Source of the DNA: Candidatus Sumerlaeota bacterium
GTDB taxonomy: Bacteria; Sumerlaeota; Sumerlaeia; JAFGJS01
Assembly (NCBI GenBank): GCA_016928995.1
Contig: JAFGJS010000039.1
Location: 1-7,822, forward strand
Reading direction: 5' to 3'
Length of the DNA stretch: 7,822 nt
Both the position numbers and the translations under genes were made by a program. The notes below the pieces were generated by a model that saw only the letters and a list, made by a program, of their open reading frames with translations, was not told the origin of the DNA and did not search any database. This document shows positions 1-7,822 of this stretch, piece after piece (position 1 is the stretch's first letter; every line of letters starts with the position of its first letter).

Positions 1-2
1 AC

Positions 3-74
3 CTGCTGCTGCTGGAACTGGCGCGACGAAACGACGACTGGGACGAAATCTGGAGCGAACGCTTGGTAGCTTGA
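3..74 (+). CDS. C-terminal tail of an unidentified protein (5' end outside window)
   Basis: In the frame starting at base 3 the window opens with 23 sense codons and a TGA stop at 72-74. The tail starts with four leucines and ends DEIWSERLVA; it is amphipathic and rich in charged and Trp residues. The codons (CTG, GCG, GAC, CGC) match those of the larger genes here, and the other two plus frames give less protein-like translations. A perfect 10-base palindrome, CTTGATCAAG, covers the stop codon at 70-79, but it has no T-run and is not a terminator. Too little is present to name a family, and the gene could belong to any protein with a helical C-terminus. Confidence 0.45.
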   Translation: MLLLELARRNDDWDEIWSERLVA

Positions 75-434
75 TCAAGATGCGCCCAATTTGACTCTTG
101 TGATGATATTCCGCTTGATATTTAGATCGACCGAATGTTGAATCTTTTTTCTGCTGCATTGTCTTTGCACTGAATTCAATCCCAGAACATGGAAATTAAA
201 CTTGTAAGGTGGGAATAAGGTTTTCTGATCTCTTTTCGTCATAATACTAGAGTGAAAAGATTGACGAAGAGTGGGTTAATTATTAAAGATAATCGTGGAT
301 TTACGCCATTTTTAATGAGGCAATTTTGCTTGTGACAATTCAATCCGGCCTTTATTTGCGCTGGATTTTTGATCGATGTGCCCAGATGTAATGACATTTT
401 GTCGCTAAAAAACCAAAAGGTGAGAGAGGGGATC
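75..434. other. AT-rich intergenic spacer, no gene seen
   Basis: This 360-base stretch is visibly AT-richer than the genes on either side. It separates the upstream partial gene from the glycanase. No reading frame in it looks like a protein: the minus-strand frame at 239-724 is cysteine-rich and lies largely opposite the glycanase, and a plus-strand extension from 369 would put 22 hydrophilic residues in front of a good signal peptide. It contains the inverted repeats at 231-271, an 11-base palindrome TTAATTATTAA at 276-286, and presumably the glycanase promoter. No clear rho-independent terminator for the upstream gene is visible. Confidence 0.6.
231..271. repeat. Overlapping inverted repeats forming two mutually exclusive hairpins
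   Basis: The left arm at 232-241 (CTTTTCGTCA) pairs with 262-271 (TGACGAAGAG) over 10 positions with one G-T pair and a 20-base loop. Most of the same left arm (231-237, TCTTTTC) also pairs perfectly with 254-260 (GAAAAGA). The two pairings compete. A TTGACG resembling a -35 box sits in the right arm at 261-266, with a poor -10 (TAAAGA, 284-289) at 17-base spacing. This could be an operator or leader structure of the glycanase gene, but AT-rich spacers produce such pairings by chance, so the role is unproven. Confidence 0.35.
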
Positions 435-3400
435 ATGAAAACAAACATGCGTATTCGACAGGGATTGACGTTAGCAATTTTGATGATGTCCATCTTGATT
501 GCAAGGGGGCAGACGATTGATCTGGCGGAGAATGTGCGCAAAGAGAGCAGTTTAAGCGGTACGACGGTGAATATGACCGGGCATTCGGAATTGCATTTAA
601 CCGATGAAACCACGCCGCTGACCAGTTGTACGATCAATCTCAATTCCCCTGACGCCTGGCTCTTTCTGGAGCAGGTGAAGCCATCCGTCGTCGTTTCAAC
701 ATACCTGAGCCAGATCCGCGTCAATGGCGCCGAGGCGGCATTAGATCATAATGTCCGTGTCGTGCAGCATCTGCAGGGCGCCGTGATCATTCCGCACGCT
801 CCCGATTATAAGGCGCTCAAGGTCTTCACCGGCGGCAATCTGACAGGGCAGCCGATGGAACTGGAGCCATACACTTATTACCGCAGCAATGAGCTGGGCG
901 ATTTCAATGACGCGATCAACTCCTTTGTGCTGAAGCGCGGCTACATGGCCACTTTTGCGCAGGAAGAGAATGGCGGCGGTTTCAGCAAGTGTTACGTGGC
1001 TCAGGATTATGACATCACTGTCGGCATGCTGCCGCCGAAACTGAGAGCGACGGCATCTTTTGTTCGCATCATCCCCTGGCGCTGGGTGGATAAAAAAGGA
1101 TGGTGCGGCGGCGGCGAAGAGCGCTTCATGCTGGATTGCGGCTGGTATTACGATTGGAACAACGTCCCCACATCGCCTCTGGACATGGAATATATCCCGA
1201 TGCGCCACAATCGGAATTGGAACGACTTTGAAAACATCAATGTGAAGCGTGAATCAACTCAAGCTTTAGGTTTCAACGAACCCAACTCCTCGGATCAGGC
1301 GGATATGTCCGTGGAAGAGGCGCTGGCGCTCTGGCCGAGAATGCTGGAGTCCGGCTTGCGGCTGGGTTCTCCGGCGCCGACGGACGGCGGAGCCGGATGG
1401 CTGTATGAATTCATGCGAAAAGCCGACGAGCGGGATTTGCGCGTCGATTTCGTCGCATTTCACTTTTATCGCGCCGGCTGGGATGGCCCTGGTCTGGTCA
1501 ATTGGATGCGCGATATTTCCGAGCAAACGGGACATCGTCCGATTTGGATTACGGAGTTCAACAACGGCGCCAACTGGACCGGCAATGAGCCTACGCAGGA
1601 ACGGAACGCCGTTGTCATCGGCGACTTCATTCAAAATCTGAACGCGGCGCCATTTATCGAGCGCTATGCGATTTACAATTGGGTTCAGCTCGGGCGGGAG
1701 TTGGTCACAGCCGGCAAGATCAATCCGGCGGGCGTGGTGTATCGCGACACCGACGCGCCCATGGCATACCAGCAGGAGATTCCCGAGGGTTACGGCAAGG
1801 TCTCCCATTACCAGTTCGAAGGCAATGTGCTGGATAGCTTTGGCAGTTATAACACCGGGATTCCTTTTGGCAATCCCGCATATGTCGAAGGAAAAACTGG
1901 GCAAGCCATCGATCTTGACGGCGAGAATGATTGCGTGGCTCTGCCGTCCAATCTGGGCGATGTCGAGCAATTCACCTTTGCCGCTTGGATCAACTGGGAT
2001 GGCGGCGCCGACAACCAGCGGTTGCTTGATTTCAGTCTTGGAAGATTGTTCGGCATGTACCTGACGCCGAAGTCCCAGGACGGCACGATGCGTTTCGCCA
2101 TTGCGACTTCGAGTTGGAACAATGAGCAAACATTGAAAACCGCTCCGCCGGCTGAAGGGGAGTGGACGCACGTGGCGGTGACGCTCCAGGGCGAGACCGG
2201 CAAACTGTACGTCAACGGCGCGCTGGCGGATACGAACACTACCATGACGATCGAACGAACCGGCGTCAGCACAGTGAACAATTACATCGGCAGAGGGCAG
2301 CATCCCGCTAATCCGTACTTCAACGGCCAGGTCGATGAGGCGCGCATCTTCAACTACGCCCTCAGCGATGAACAGATCGCCGCGCTGTATGAAGGCTCCC
2401 AGAGCAACGCGCCGGTCTTTATGACTCAAACCATCGCGCGCAAGAACGGCATGCCGGGGATGCCTTACAGCGATGACATGGCCAGCTTCGCCGCCGATAT
2501 CGACACCGGCGACGTGCTGGCGTTCAGCAAAGCCGAAGGCCCCGACTGGCTGCAAGTCTCTGAAGCCGGAGCGCTCACCGGCATTCCGGCAGAGGGCTGC
2601 CTCGGTCCCAATCAATTCACTGTCCGCGTCACGGACCGCGATGGGAATTCAGCCGACGCCACGCTGGACATCTTGATCAACGAGCCGATGCTCGTTCCTT
2701 TGTATAAATTCGACGGCGACGCCAACGACAGTTCCGGCAAGAATTTCAATGGAACCGAATGCGGCACTCCAACATACGTTGAAGGCGTGGACGGACAAGC
2801 CCTCAGCCTCGACGCCGATGATGATTACATCTTGCTGCCTAAAGACGCGGCAAAATCCGACGACCTGACCATCGCCGCATGGGTATACTGGGAAGGCGGA
2901 GCGGCATGGCAGCGCATCATGGACTTTGGCAACGGCACCGGCGAGTATCTTTTCCTCACGCCGCGCTCCGCAGGCGGCACGTTGAGGTTCGGTATGCGCA
3001 CAGTGGGAGGCGGCGAGCAAACGCTGAACGCTGACCGGGCGCTCTCCGATCAGCAATGGGTGCATGTGGCTGTCACGCTGAGCGACGACACGGGAAAACT
3101 CTATGTCAACGGGCAGGTTGTGGATACGGAAACGATGACCATGAATCCCAATGATATCGCCCAGGTCACCAACTATATCGGCAAGAGCCAGTGGCCCGAT
3201 CCGATGTTCAAGGGCCGCATCGACGACTTCCGCGTTTACAACTACGCCCTGAGCGATGAACAGATCAGAGACCTTCCCGGCGTGCGCGGGTATAACAATC
3301 CGCCCCGGTTTGTCGAGAGCGAGATGACGCGCTCCAACGCCACAGCGGGCGTGGAGTACACCGGCCAGACGCTGGCCGGCACAGCGACCGATGACGGCGC

Positions 3401-4202
3401 GGAACAGTTCACCTTCAGCAAGGTCGATGGCCCGGCTTGGCTTCAGGTCGCGGAAGACGGCGCGCTTTCCGGCACGCCTGGAGCGGACGATGCCGGACCG
3501 GCGGTTTTCACGGTTCGCGTCACGGACTCCCTCGACGGTTCCGCCGAGGCCAAACTGGGCGTCACGGTGAAGCCTCAAGCCATGATCCTCCACTACGAAT
3601 TTGATGGAAACGTCGATGATATCTCTGGCGCGAAATATGACACTCCAACGACCACAACGGGCAATCCGGAATTCGCCGAAGGCAAAATCAACCAGGCCCT
3701 TGCCTTCGACGGCGACGAGGATGCTGTGATTTTGCCTGCGGGCATCGCGGATTGCATGGATTTCACCGTCGCGACATGGGTTTACTGGATGGGCGGCGAA
3801 AAACCCTGGCAGCGCATTTTCGACTTCGGCGCCGGAAGACAGGAGAATCTATTTCTCACTCCGCAATCCGGCAGCAATGTGCTCCGTTTCGGCATTCGAA
3901 ACCGCGACACCAGCGAAGAACTGGATGCTGAGTCAGCGCTCGTCATTGGCGAATGGACCCACGTGGCCGTCGTGCTCAACGGCGGCACGGGCAAGCTTTA
4001 CATCAACGGCGCTGAGGCGGCTTCGAAAGCCATCACGCTGAATCCAGCGGACTTTCGCCGTGAGAAGAACTACATCGGCAAGAGCCAATACCCCGATCCG
4101 CTGTTCGTAGGCCGCATTGACGATTTCCGCGTATACAACTACGCCTTGACCAGTGGGGAGATCGCCGTGCTTGCGGGCGGCGGCAAACAGTTGGAGGAAT
4201 AG
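435..4202 (+). CDS. Secreted multidomain glycanase: betagamma-crystallin-like, GH128 core, three LamG and two Ig-like modules
   Basis: The protein has 1255 residues. The ATG at 435 is chosen because GAGAGGGG lies just upstream (424-431) and a signal peptide follows directly (basic start, hydrophobic residues 11-22, likely cleavage after ARG at 23-25); an ATG at 369 would bury it. Residues about 26-125 are unassigned. Residues about 127-211 resemble a two-motif betagamma-crystallin fold (NDAINS at 158-163, near the calcium-site pattern). Residues about 217-450 are a GH128-type catalytic core: WYYDW, EYIPM, GFNEPN with probable acid/base E282, VAFHFY, and WITEFN with probable nucleophile E374. 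Then follow LamG-like jellyrolls at about 456-652, 752-951 and 1050-1248, separated by He_PIG-type Ig-like modules at about 658-750 and 954-1050. The family is known for endo-beta-1,3-glucanases, so extracellular beta-glucan cleavage with LamG-assisted binding is inferred. No dockerin, sorting signal or C-terminal membrane anchor is seen. The gene appears monocistronic, closed by the terminator at 4255. The catalytic family is fairly sure; the substrate is not. Confidence 0.9.
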   Translation: MKTNMRIRQGLTLAILMMSILIARGQTIDLAENVRKESSLSGTTVNMTGHSELHLTDETTPLTSCTINLNSPDAWLFLEQVKPSVVVSTYLSQIRVNGAEAALDHNVRVVQHLQGAVIIPHAPDYKALKVFTGGNLTGQPMELEPYTYYRSNELGDFNDAINSFVLKRGYMATFAQEENGGGFSKCYVAQDYDITVGMLPPKLRATASFVRIIPWRWVDKKGWCGGGEERFMLDCGWYYDWNNVPTSPLDMEYIPMRHNRNWNDFENINVKRESTQALGFNEPNSSDQADMSVEEALALWPRMLESGLRLGSPAPTDGGAGWLYEFMRKADERDLRVDFVAFHFYRAGWDGPGLVNWMRDISEQTGHRPIWITEFNNGANWTGNEPTQERNAVVIGDFIQNLNAAPFIERYAIYNWVQLGRELVTAGKINPAGVVYRDTDAPMAYQQEIPEGYGKVSHYQFEGNVLDSFGSYNTGIPFGNPAYVEGKTGQAIDLDGENDCVALPSNLGDVEQFTFAAWINWDGGADNQRLLDFSLGRLFGMYLTPKSQDGTMRFAIATSSWNNEQTLKTAPPAEGEWTHVAVTLQGETGKLYVNGALADTNTTMTIERTGVSTVNNYIGRGQHPANPYFNGQVDEARIFNYALSDEQIAALYEGSQSNAPVFMTQTIARKNGMPGMPYSDDMASFAADIDTGDVLAFSKAEGPDWLQVSEAGALTGIPAEGCLGPNQFTVRVTDRDGNSADATLDILINEPMLVPLYKFDGDANDSSGKNFNGTECGTPTYVEGVDGQALSLDADDDYILLPKDAAKSDDLTIAAWVYWEGGAAWQRIMDFGNGTGEYLFLTPRSAGGTLRFGMRTVGGGEQTLNADRALSDQQWVHVAVTLSDDTGKLYVNGQVVDTETMTMNPNDIAQVTNYIGKSQWPDPMFKGRIDDFRVYNYALSDEQIRDLPGVRGYNNPPRFVESEMTRSNATAGVEYTGQTLAGTATDDGAEQFTFSKVDGPAWLQVAEDGALSGTPGADDAGPAVFTVRVTDSLDGSAEAKLGVTVKPQAMILHYEFDGNVDDISGAKYDTPTTTTGNPEFAEGKINQALAFDGDEDAVILPAGIADCMDFTVATWVYWMGGEKPWQRIFDFGAGRQENLFLTPQSGSNVLRFGIRNRDTSEELDAESALVIGEWTHVAVVLNGGTGKLYINGAEAASKAITLNPADFRREKNYIGKSQYPDPLFVGRIDDFRVYNYALTSGEIAVLAGGGKQLEE
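3171..3255 (+). repeat. Intragenic repeat, copy in LamG module 2
   Basis: This segment encodes NYIGKSQ, then PDP-F-GRIDDFRVYNYAL, the last strands of the second LamG module. It matches 4068-4152 in the third module with high identity at DNA level, including synonymous positions. A shorter related segment lies at 2280-2379 in the first module, sharing ACTACGCCCT and the following AGCGATGAACAGATC. The pattern indicates duplication of LamG plus Ig-like units inside the gene. Confidence 0.75.
4068..4152 (+). repeat. Intragenic repeat, copy in LamG module 3
   Basis: This is the partner of 3171-3255. The peptide NYIGKSQYPDPLFVGRIDD and the following FRVYNYAL are almost the same as in module 2, whereas module 1 (2280-2365) is more diverged. 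Modules 2 and 3 are therefore the most recent duplicates, or have been homogenised by recombination. Confidence 0.75.
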
Positions 4203-4409: not shown

Positions 4410-4496
4410 GCCGAAGTGGCGGAATTGGCAGACGCGCACGGTTCAGGGCCGTGTGACCGCGAGGTCGTGTGGGTTCAACTCCCACCTTCGGCACCA
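4410..4496 (+). tRNA. tRNA-Leu (anticodon CAG)
   Basis: A full cloverleaf of class II type. The acceptor stem GCCGAAG (4410-4416) pairs with CTTCGGC (4486-4492), followed by discriminator A and an encoded CCA (4494-4496). The anticodon stem CACGG/CCGTG (4437-4441 and 4449-4453) holds the loop TTCAGGG with anticodon CAG at 4444-4446, which reads CUG. A long variable arm (GACC-GCGA-GGTC, 4455-4466) is typical of leucine tRNAs. The T-arm GTGGG/CCCAC encloses TTCAACT. It lies alone between two protein genes and has its own terminator. CUG is a frequent codon in the neighbouring genes. Confidence 0.97.
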
Positions 4497-4642: not shown

Positions 4643-4663
4643 GCGCGAGCTGGTTGCTCGTGC
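4643..4663 (+). promoter_or_regulatory. Leader hairpin just before the phosphatase ribosome binding site
   Basis: GCGCGAGC (4643-4650) pairs with GCTCGTGC (4656-4663) over 8 positions with one G-T pair and a 5-base loop. It ends 5 bases before the Shine-Dalgarno-like AAGGCGG (4669-4675). It lacks a T-run, so it is not a terminator; an effect on mRNA stability or translation is possible. Confidence 0.4.
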
Positions 4664-4680
4664 AAGATAAGGCGGTCATC

Positions 4681-6084
4681 ATGCGGAAGAGTATTTTCAT
4701 CCTTGCGTTATTCGTGTTAAGCCTGAATTTGTCCTGCTCCATTTTGGGGCTGAAAAAAGCCACGCCGGCGGAAACCGGCGCGTCGATGGTAAGCGCTCCG
4801 CTGGGCGTGAAGAATGTGATCCTGATGATCAGCGACGGCTGCGGCTATAATCACATCGCTACGGCCTCCGCTTATAAATATGGCGTTGAAGACGGCTTCA
4901 TTTACCAGTCGTTTCCGTTGCAAGTCGGGATGAGCACATACTGCATCGGCGATAGTTACGATCCGTCGAAGGCCTGGGAGTCGCTGGATTATCTGAAGAG
5001 CAATTTCACCGATTCCGCGGCCGCCGCCACGGCGATGTCAACGGGATTGAAAACCTATCGAAACGCCATCAACATGATCGGCGTTGATGATATGGAGGCA
5101 TCGGTCGGTTTCAACGTGGTTGAATATGCGGAAGACAACGGCAAATCCACCGGCGTTGTGACGTCCGTGGAACTCTCGCACGCCACGCCGGCCGGTTTTG
5201 TCGCGCATAACGCCTCGCGCAGTCACTACGCGGACATTGCCCGTGAAATGCTGCAAATGAGCGCAGTGGATGTGATTATGGGCTGCGGCCATCCGTTGTA
5301 TGACAACGACGGCCAGCCGCGGAAAGATGGGAAATATGACTATGTCGGCGGCGAGGCCGTGTGGAAGGAATTGAACGAGGGGAAACTCGCCGTGTCGGAC
5401 GCCAATGGCGATCATCTGCCGGACGTCTGGACGCTGATTCAAACGCGCGAGGAATTCCAGCAGCTCGCGCAGTCCGGCGCTCCTCCAGCGCGCGTGGTCG
5501 GCGTTGCGCAGGCGTATGAGACGCTTCAAGAGAAACGTAGCGGAGACGACAAAGCGGCGCCGTATGCCGTCGCCCTTACGCAAAGCGTGCCGGTGCTGAG
5601 CGAAATGACGCTGGGCGCGCTGAATACGCTTTCCCGCGATGAAGACGGCTTTTTCCTGATGGTGGAAGGCGGCGCCGTGGATTGGACCGGCCATGCCAAT
5701 CAGACTGGACGCTTGATTGAAGAAGAACTGGATTTTTGCGATGCGGTCGCGGCCGTCGTGCAGTGGGTCGAGGCGAACAGCAGCTGGGACGAAACGCTGG
5801 TCGTGGTGACCGCCGATCATGAGACCGGCTGCCTGACTGGACCCGAAAAGAAGGAATCGTTGAAAGAGCAGTTCCAGATTGTCAATGCTGGCCAGGGGAA
5901 CGTTCCCGGCGTTGAATGGCATTCCAACAACCACACCAATTCGCTGGTTCCGCTGTTCGCTAAAGGTCCGAAACTCGCGCTTAAACACTTGCAGCAAGCG
6001 GCCGATCAGCAGGATCCGGTGCGCGGCGCCTATCTGGATAACACCGAATTGGCCCAAACGCTGATTGATTGCGTCGGTCAGTAG
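4681..6084 (+). CDS. Alkaline phosphatase, PhoA family (exported)
   Basis: This enzyme of 467 residues hydrolyses phosphate monoesters with two zinc and one magnesium ion. The ATG at 4681 follows AAGGCGG (4669-4675) and opens a hydrophobic export signal; the upstream TTG at 4654 would add nine poorly placed residues. Catalytic serine S112 lies in DSAAAATA. Zn1 ligands are D334, H338 and H418, Zn2 ligands D52, D379 and H380, and magnesium ligands D52, T169 and E329. R180 matches the phosphate-binding arginine. H167 and W335 replace E. coli D153 and K328, the combination known from cold-active marine-type enzymes such as TAB5. C19 in NLSC could be lipidated, but Asn at -3 is unusual for a lipobox, so periplasmic release or membrane anchoring both remain open. 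The promoter region carries possible phosphate-control repeats. The 3' end overlaps the convergent SGNH gene by 7 bases. Confidence 0.95.
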   Translation: MRKSIFILALFVLSLNLSCSILGLKKATPAETGASMVSAPLGVKNVILMISDGCGYNHIATASAYKYGVEDGFIYQSFPLQVGMSTYCIGDSYDPSKAWESLDYLKSNFTDSAAAATAMSTGLKTYRNAINMIGVDDMEASVGFNVVEYAEDNGKSTGVVTSVELSHATPAGFVAHNASRSHYADIAREMLQMSAVDVIMGCGHPLYDNDGQPRKDGKYDYVGGEAVWKELNEGKLAVSDANGDHLPDVWTLIQTREEFQQLAQSGAPPARVVGVAQAYETLQEKRSGDDKAAPYAVALTQSVPVLSEMTLGALNTLSRDEDGFFLMVEGGAVDWTGHANQTGRLIEEELDFCDAVAAVVQWVEANSSWDETLVVVTADHETGCLTGPEKKESLKEQFQIVNAGQGNVPGVEWHSNNHTNSLVPLFAKGPKLALKHLQQAADQQDPVRGAYLDNTELAQTLIDCVGQ

Positions 6085-7148
6085 TTTTGGATGGCCTGCA
6101 TGACGGATTCCGAGAACGGCAATCCCGACTCGCTTTCGACGTGCCAGTAGTCGTGGTAGTCGTCGTTTGTCAATGGGTATAACTTTTCCGCGCCGATCAA
6201 GATCGCGTTGTTGTGTCTATCGCAAAGGGCGGCCAGCAAGTCCATCGCTTCATCGTGAATCTCCTGCTGTTCGCGCAGCACATCGGGATAGTAGCCTCCC
6301 TCGATGACGAAAATCCGCAAGTTCCGTTCAGCGGCCCAGGCGAAAAACTCATCCAGGATTTCAATGTTCGTCGCAAACCAGTGCGAGTTAATGTAGCGCA
6401 AGGCTTCGAGTTCGGCTTGATCGACGACATCCTGATCCACTGCGGTGATGTCGTCCGCCCGATAGGCGTCCATGCGTTTGAATTTTTTATCCGCCAGCCC
6501 CTTGAAAATATATTGAAGCCGGTAAGCGGCGATTTTGTTGGCGATGAGGAACTCCCAGATCAAGTTTTTATCCACGGTGGAGTCTTTCAGCGGCCATGCG
6601 GCATAGTGCAGCAGCTTGCCGGCAGGTTGCGGCGGCGCCAGTTTGGCGCCAAGCATATTCGTCCAGTTGGCCAGGTCGAAATCCGACAAGGTCAGGATGA
6701 TTGCCTTGTCGCATTTTTTATCGATGATATCGCGATGCAGCAGATAGTCATACGGGCACATCCCGCCCATGGAGAGCATATCGAAATCGTCATGCTTGCC
6801 GGCCCATACTTCATAAAGCCGGCCGACCTGGCTGCTTCCCACCGCGAGATAGTCCACCGGCTCCAGTTCTTGCATCCGCATCAATTCGCATTCCAGCGCG
6901 ACATACTGACGAAATCCCATGTCGCGCACATGGAAACGGTTCAACGCAGCCTGGAGAAAATACGGATTGCGCAGGATCAGCGTTTCAGCGCACAGCGCCA
7001 AGCAGATGGCGAAGAGGATCTTCCATCGCAGCGCAGCGGGCTGCCAAAGCCAAAGCGCAATCGCCCCGCCCAGCGCGAAGACTCCCAGCAACAGCGTCAG
7101 TTTGCATGATAGCGTCATGGCAATATATGAAAGACCAAGGACAAACAT
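6078..7148 (-). CDS. Membrane-anchored SGNH-hydrolase-like protein, probable partner of the MBOAT acyltransferase
   Basis: The protein has 356 residues. The start is the ATG at 7148-7146: AAGGCGG lies 4 bases before it, while the preceding TTG (7151) is too close. Hydrophobic segments at about 16-35 and 42-59, and possibly 2-14, suggest an N-terminal membrane anchor with the rest outside the cytoplasm. GSSQ at 104-107 resembles block I of SGNH esterases (nucleophile S106), and DYWH at 333-336 near the C-terminus supplies a DxxH pair (D333, H336); the YDYLL region after GG at 128-129 could be block II. DltD, AlgX/AlgJ and PatB share this plan and work beside an MBOAT protein in O-acylation of cell-surface polymers. 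The gene begins 9 bases after the MBOAT stop, whose TAA overlaps the Shine-Dalgarno, so translation is probably coupled. The exact family and acceptor polymer are not recognisable. Confidence 0.85.
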   Translation of the reverse strand: MFVLGLSYIAMTLSCKLTLLLGVFALGGAIALWLWQPAALRWKILFAICLALCAETLILRNPYFLQAALNRFHVRDMGFRQYVALECELMRMQELEPVDYLAVGSSQVGRLYEVWAGKHDDFDMLSMGGMCPYDYLLHRDIIDKKCDKAIILTLSDFDLANWTNMLGAKLAPPQPAGKLLHYAAWPLKDSTVDKNLIWEFLIANKIAAYRLQYIFKGLADKKFKRMDAYRADDITAVDQDVVDQAELEALRYINSHWFATNIEILDEFFAWAAERNLRIFVIEGGYYPDVLREQQEIHDEAMDLLAALCDRHNNAILIGAEKLYPLTNDDYHDYWHVESESGLPFSESVMQAIQNY

Positions 7149-7157
7149 CAATCCGCC

Positions 7158-7742
7158 TTAAAATTGAAAGTAAATAAAACTCCGCGTGCCCCAATTGCCG
7201 AACATCAGCAGCAGGTAAATCATGCCGATGACCAGCGTGATTTTATGATAGTCGTTGTCGAGCGGCATCTCGCGATGCGCTCCCCGCCGGAATTGCATCG
7301 CGAGAATCAACGTTGGAATCGATGCATAAAAGATCGTGCTGCCCAGCAGATACCTGGACTTCACCGTGGGCGCGAAGAAGTTGAACAACAGGCTTTCGCT
7401 GATGGATTTTAATGCCGCCATGTCTGGGGCGCGGAAAATCATCCAGCCCACGCAGGTGAGTTGAAACATGACGAACACTGCGGCCCAGCGCCATCGCGGA
7501 TATTTGCGCAGCGCCTCTTCCACTTTGGCCAGGCGGAACGCGACCAGCAACATTCCGTGATAGGCGCCCCACACCACAAAATGCCACGCCGCACCGTGCC
7601 AGAGGCCGCCCAGCAGCATGGTGATCGTCAGATTACGCAAGGTGCGCGCCGTTCCATACCGGTTACCGCCCAGCGGAATGTAGAGGTAATCGCGCAGCCA
7701 GCGCGACAGGGTGATGTGCCAATGCTGCCAGAACTCGCTAGC
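7158..7742 (-). CDS. MBOAT family O-acyltransferase, AlgI-like (C-terminal part; 5' end displaced)
   Basis: About 194 residues of the membrane-bound O-acyltransferase family remain, running from ASEFWQHWH to the TAA at 7160-7158. Family signatures are clear: EFWQHWHITLSRWLRDYLYI, PLGGN, then LLGGLWHGAAW with the catalytic histidine encoded at 7598-7596, followed by hydrophobic helices. Such proteins (AlgI, PatA, DltB) move acyl groups across the membrane to a partner esterase/transferase; RDYLYIPLGGN favours the AlgI branch. A full protein has about 450-500 residues, so the first half is missing. Upstream of 7742 the frame stays open to the window edge, but the translation (RITRLEQEKALFQR) is hydrophilic and unlike the expected membrane helix and NFNRPY-type segment. 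The break coincides with CTAG and an IS-like end, so the gene is probably interrupted. A short gene start at the TTG of 7640 is unlikely because conserved sequence precedes it. Confidence 0.85.
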   Translation of the reverse strand, partial: ASEFWQHWHITLSRWLRDYLYIPLGGNRYGTARTLRNLTITMLLGGLWHGAAWHFVVWGAYHGMLLVAFRLAKVEEALRKYPRWRWAAVFVMFQLTCVGWMIFRAPDMAALKSISESLLFNFFAPTVKSRYLLGSTIFYASIPTLILAMQFRRGAHREMPLDNDYHKITLVIGMIYLLLMFGNWGTRSFIYFQF

Positions 7743-7822
7743 AGCCCGTTGAAAAAGGGCCTTTTCTTGTTCCAGCCGCGTTATGCGGCCTTCCAGCGCG
7801 ATGTTTGTTGTAAGGCCAAGAT
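7742..7822 (-). mobile_element. Probable terminus of an insertion sequence inserted in the MBOAT gene (partial)
   Basis: MBOAT homology stops at CTAG (7738-7741). The next bases, CAGCCCGTTGAAAAAGGGCC, resemble terminal inverted repeats of DDE insertion sequences (IS1182/IS4-like ends of the form CAGnCnGTTGAAAAA), and CTAG would suit a 4-bp target duplication. GCCC (7744-7747) and GGGC (7757-7760) form a small stem. On the minus strand 7822-7781 reads as 13 codons ending TSRWKAA and a TAA stop, which could be the C-terminus of a transposase. Only 81 bases are visible, so neither the other end nor the second CTAG can be seen. The alternative is a rearrangement or assembly join. Confidence 0.45.

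What the first reader, a model, noticed from the sequence alone, without database searches (positions are those of the whole stretch)
7730..7822. MBOAT gene cut at CTAG by an IS-like end
Conserved MBOAT sequence reaches exactly to GCTAGC, then changes to CAGCCCGTTGAAAAAGGGCC, an IS-terminus-like sequence, with a possible transposase C-terminus on the minus strand. This would inactivate the acyltransferase or place the downstream SGNH gene under IS-borne transcription. If the contig ends here, it also fits an assembly break at a repeated element.
Basis: partly seen in the sequence, partly recalled or inferred. Interest (0 to 1): 0.6.

Follow-up and report, generated by a model that had tools for sequence, protein, structure and literature searches.

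The report
Jumping gene split an acyltransferase gene
A common kind of bacterial jumping gene, present in several copies in this genome, sits inside an acyltransferase gene, and the DNA assembly stops there because the element is repeated, so this is a real but ordinary event.

Summary
Window 7742-7822 is the terminal 81 bp of a multi-copy insertion sequence. The same 81 bp occur 100% identically at two other contig ends (C128, C9) and with one mismatch in a nearly intact copy (C61). That copy overlaps contig C19 by 87 bp to give a complete 1599-bp element: 16-bp perfect terminal inverted repeats, one DDE transposase of about 490 aa, and a 4-bp TTAA target duplication. The closest family model is IS1182, although the score is below NCBIfam's cut-off. 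The flanks follow a YTAR rule (CTAG, TTAG, TTAA, CTAA), and CTAG at 7738-7741 fits it. The MBOAT fragment (7158-7741, minus strand) keeps about 40% of the protein; its N-terminal half is not in the held bin. The window is the whole of contig C82, broken at the repeat (apparent assembly word about 87). Its other end (1-87) is a second, different repeat, found at 17 places. MBOAT inactivation is inferred, and effects on the downstream gene (6078-7151) are untested. Non-autonomous mini-elements with the same ends also occur. This is a new member of a known kind, with low interest.

The parts
7742..7822 (-). Terminal 81 bp of an IS1182-like insertion sequence (end downstream of the transposase), cut by the contig end
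   Evidence: 100% to C128 and C9 contig ends; 80/81 to the assembled copy in C61
7742..7757 (+). 16-bp terminal inverted repeat CAGCCCGTTGAAAAAG
   Evidence: Identical at both ends of the 1599-bp C61/C19 copy; 32 places with up to 2 mismatches in the genome against 2 for the reversed control
7781..7822 (-). Last 13 codons and stop of the transposase
   Evidence: Same residues as the C-terminus of P0001 and of the reading frame of the full element
7738..7741 (.). CTAG, presumed 4-bp target duplication (only one side visible)
   Evidence: YTAR flank at all 7 IS ends; identical duplications at two copies, TTAA and TTAG
7158..7741 (-). C-terminal part (about 194 codons) of an MBOAT O-acyltransferase gene, interrupted at its conserved (P)SEFW motif
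   Evidence: PF03062 6.4e-16; intact homologues of about 480 aa, including own C149
6078..7151 (-).
   Evidence: related gene directly after an intact MBOAT in L101 and L105
1..87 (+). End of a second, different multi-copy repeat that bounds the contig on the left, ending TTGATCAAGATGCGCCC
   Evidence: 100% to C61:1-87, 92-96% to 15 other places, with unique flanks after the boundary

Best explanation
An IS1182-like insertion sequence (about 1.6 kb, 16-bp inverted repeats, DDE transposase) transposed into a CTAG within the codons for the conserved (P)SEFW motif of an MBOAT gene and probably duplicated the 4 bp, splitting the gene. The transposase gene lies on the same strand as MBOAT and points towards its C-terminal fragment and the downstream gene. 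Because nearly identical copies sit elsewhere in the genome, the assembler (word about 87) could not pass the element and ended contig C82 81 bases into it. Shown: the junction, the repeat, the element with its ends, transposase and target duplications in other copies, and the absence of the MBOAT N-half from the bin. Inferred: the second CTAG at this site and loss of MBOAT function.
For: Multi-copy end sequence. Complete element from C61 and C19 (87-bp identical overlap, 1599 bp, 16/16 inverted repeats, TTAA on both sides). Transposase: Pfam DUF772, DDE_Tnp_1_6 and DDE_Tnp_1; best NCBIfam model IS1182 at 2.7e-46. YTAR flank at 7 of 7 IS ends against a background of 0.0034. C9 and C83 share TTAG, and an open frame of 471 codons spans the two flanks joined at it. 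Conserved MBOAT sequence stops at the CTAG; among 77 homologues the residues before E/D-F-W are most often P (29) and S (25), as the base sequence allows here. Intact MBOATs of about 480 aa exist in this genome (C149) and in relatives.
Against: The N-terminal half of this MBOAT and the second end of this insertion are not in the bin, so the target duplication of this copy is not seen, and a deletion next to the element cannot be excluded. The transposase scores below NCBIfam's IS1182 cut-off (158.5 against 270 bits).
Confidence: 0.93

Rival explanations
1. The junction is the edge of an IS-mediated deletion or rearrangement: the element lies next to the MBOAT C-terminal part, but the N-terminal half was lost from the genome.
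For: The N-half is not found in a 92.5% complete bin.
Against: The missing contig would start inside a repeat and could simply be short or unbinned. There are more downstream ends (C82, C128, C9, C61) than upstream ends (C34, C83, C19) among the contigs, so at least one contig with an upstream end is missing from the bin anyway.
Confidence: 0.15
2. The junction is an assembly chimera and the MBOAT gene is intact in the organism.
For: A repeat end at a contig end is where mis-joins happen; the population may also be mixed.
Against: The join falls exactly at the 16-bp inverted repeat, with a flank that obeys the YTAR rule seen at the other IS ends. The contig ends about one word length after the join, as expected where the repeat begins.
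Confidence: 0.04
3. In addition to splitting MBOAT, the element drives transcription of the downstream gene (6078-7151).
For: The transposase gene points towards MBOAT and the downstream gene, and no terminator-like site was found between 7781 and 7742.
Against: No promoter-like site was found in the visible IS end; the two promoter-like hits lie outside it and are within chance. A hit at 7151-7122, at the start of the downstream gene, shows nothing either way.
Confidence: 0.15

Closest known systems
IS1182 family, e.g. ISPse1 of Paracoccus seriniphilus (1653 bp, 16/16 inverted repeats, 4-bp duplication; PMC3281130)
   Same: Length (1599 bp), 16-bp perfect inverted repeats, 4-bp duplication, single DDE transposase; best NCBIfam model is IS1182
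   Different: Transposase below the curated score; no sequence comparison with ISPse1 was made. IS1272 of the same family replaces stem-loops and makes no duplication (PMC5678879), unlike this element
Transposases on plasmids of Sphingobium, Rhizorhabdus and others (H1-H5), one annotated as IS5 family
   Same: 46-48% identity over 87% of the protein, the closest annotated relatives found
   Different: The last about 60 residues of this transposase are not aligned
IS1182-related MITEs of Methanosarcina acetivorans (160 and 169 bp, partner ISMac2; PMC3852290)
   Same: Short non-autonomous elements that go with an IS in the same genome (97-129 bp here)
   Different: No sequence comparison was made; here the inner part consists of REP-like palindromic stretches

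Membership tests
IS1182 family insertion sequence | Transposase passes the family model | tested here: not met
   NF033551 is the best model at 2.7e-46, but 158.5 bits against a cut-off of 270 (480 of about 490 aa)
IS1182 family insertion sequence | Size of roughly 1.3-1.95 kb with terminal inverted repeats | tested here: met
   1599 bp, 16/16 inverted repeats; size range from general knowledge, ISPse1 1653 bp
IS1182 family insertion sequence | DDE transposase domains | tested here: met
   DUF772, DDE_Tnp_1_6 and DDE_Tnp_1 above their Pfam cut-offs
IS1182 family insertion sequence | Short target duplication (4 bp in ISPse1) | tested here: met
   TTAA at C61/C19 and TTAG at C9/C83; not visible for the window's own copy
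IS5 family | Transposase passes an IS5 model | tested here: not met
   NF033581 86.1 bits against 140; the YTAR target preference resembles that of the IS5 group (general knowledge)
MBOAT O-acyltransferase | PF03062 over the gathering score | tested here: met
   59 bits against 27, but only profile positions 225-328; N-half missing

The most novel reading that the evidence does not exclude
A not yet catalogued branch between the IS1182 and IS5 families, with a strict YTAR 4-bp target and a set of mini-elements that it moves within one genome of a poorly sampled bacterial family.
Probability: 0.25. Interest if true: 0.2.

Novelty: new member of a known kind. Interest (0 to 1): 0.12.

Why it matters
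Mostly as annotation. It explains why this contig ends here and flags that the MBOAT reading frame is a fragment, not a short protein. It also warns that the open frame 7158-7820 is a chance fusion of IS end and MBOAT. The repeat accounts for part of the fragmentation of this genome.

Tried and rejected
Pairing C82 with C34 (both CTAG): the joined frame has only 12 codons before a stop and no MBOAT similarity, so rejected. Reading the window's end as the mini-element: it departs from the mini-element after the terminal repeat and follows the transposase-bearing element. Finding the N-half of MBOAT in the bin by Pfam model and by an alignment of eight N-halves gave only the other MBOAT on C149. 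Literature searches for a CTAG rule in IS1182 elements gave nothing useful. Looking for a relative of the downstream gene beside the C149 MBOAT: none. A first join of C9 and C83 was off by one base and was corrected.

Full report
What is there. The window is the complete contig C82 (7822 bp) of a 161-contig, 4.55-Mb genome, 92.5% complete. MBOAT coding sequence on the minus strand (PF03062, 6.4e-16) runs up to CTAG at 7738-7741. From 7742 to the contig end lies CAGCCCGTTGAAAAAGGGCC..., which recurs at 100% at the ends of contigs C128 and C9 and at 80/81 in C61.

The element. C61 carries 1485 bp of it, and its last 87 bp are identical to the first 87 of C19. Together they give 1599 bp with perfect 16-bp inverted repeats, TTAA on both sides, and one transposase frame of about 490 residues. 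The transposase has DUF772 and DDE domains and fits the NCBIfam IS1182 model best, though below its cut-off. The closest annotated plasmid relatives are 46-48% identical and called IS5 family transposase or simply transposase. Among 39 other genomes of the phylum, one (G008) has fragments at 54-63% identity and four have only weak matches. The minus strand at 7781-7822 of the window is the transposase C-terminus, ILALQQTSRWKAA*.

Target sites. The four bases outside the element are CTAG (C82, C128, C34), TTAG (C9), CTAA (C83, the complement of TTAG) and TTAA (C61, C19): YTAR at 7 of 7 ends, while YTAR starts at 0.34% of positions in 118 kb of this genome. C9 and C83 share TTAG, and their joined flanks hold an open frame of 471 codons across the junction. 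That join was made by position alone, before the gene was known; the frame looks YD/RHS-repeat-like by eye and was not pursued. In the window, CTAG forms part of the codons of a (P)SEFW motif; P and S are the commonest residues there in 77 homologues.

Contig break. Ends of this element, of diverged relatives, or of mini-elements with the same terminal repeat lie at 16 contig ends. C61 and C19 overlap by 87 bp, several contigs end 87 bp into a repeat, and the window's left end shares exactly 87 bp with C61. This fits an assembler word of about 87 that could not pass repeats (inference). The left repeat is a different element, ending TTGATCAAGATGCGCCC, found at 17 places including the window.

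The interrupted gene. Intact homologues have about 480 residues; the fragment corresponds to the last 194 or so. The N-half is not in the bin. An intact MBOAT is on C149 (48% identical). A relative of the downstream gene directly follows an intact MBOAT in two Omnitrophota genomes (L101, L105), so the pair is a plausible unit, but the link is weak (2 of 80 loci). Loss of function is inferred from the split. The frame 7158-7820 listed as open is the MBOAT fragment fused by chance to a non-transposase frame of the IS end.

Mini-elements. About 18 places carry whole or contig-cut copies of 97-129-bp elements with similar ends and REP-like inner palindromes. Two have identical 4-bp duplications (ATAG, TTAG); others have unequal flanks. 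They are probably moved by the IS transposase (inference), as MITEs have been tied to an IS1182 element in Methanosarcina (PMC3852290).

Verdict.

Noticed in passing
window 1-87: Left contig end is the end of another multi-copy repeat (17 places, sharp boundary after GATGCGCCC) that encodes a protein C-terminus LLLLELARRNDDWDEIWSERLVA*; probably another insertion sequence, family not determined.
   Followed up: partly
L017:4762-4890 (C20:59761-59889) and about 17 other places: Mini-elements of 97-129 bp with the same terminal repeats as the IS and REP-like inner palindromes (GTAGCGCCAGCGTCCCGCTGGC and similar); some flanks are unequal.
   Followed up: partly
L013:5711-5937, L012 end, L057:4666-4960, L053:1-46: Diverged remnants or relatives of the same IS end (C103, C1, C96, C53), suggesting older related elements.
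   Followed up: no
window 369-4202: 1277-residue protein with a Glyco_hydro_cc catalytic core, three Laminin_G_3 domains and Ig-like domains.
   Followed up: no
window 4410-4496 and 4654-6084: tRNA-Leu (CAG) followed by an alkaline phosphatase family gene.
   Followed up: no
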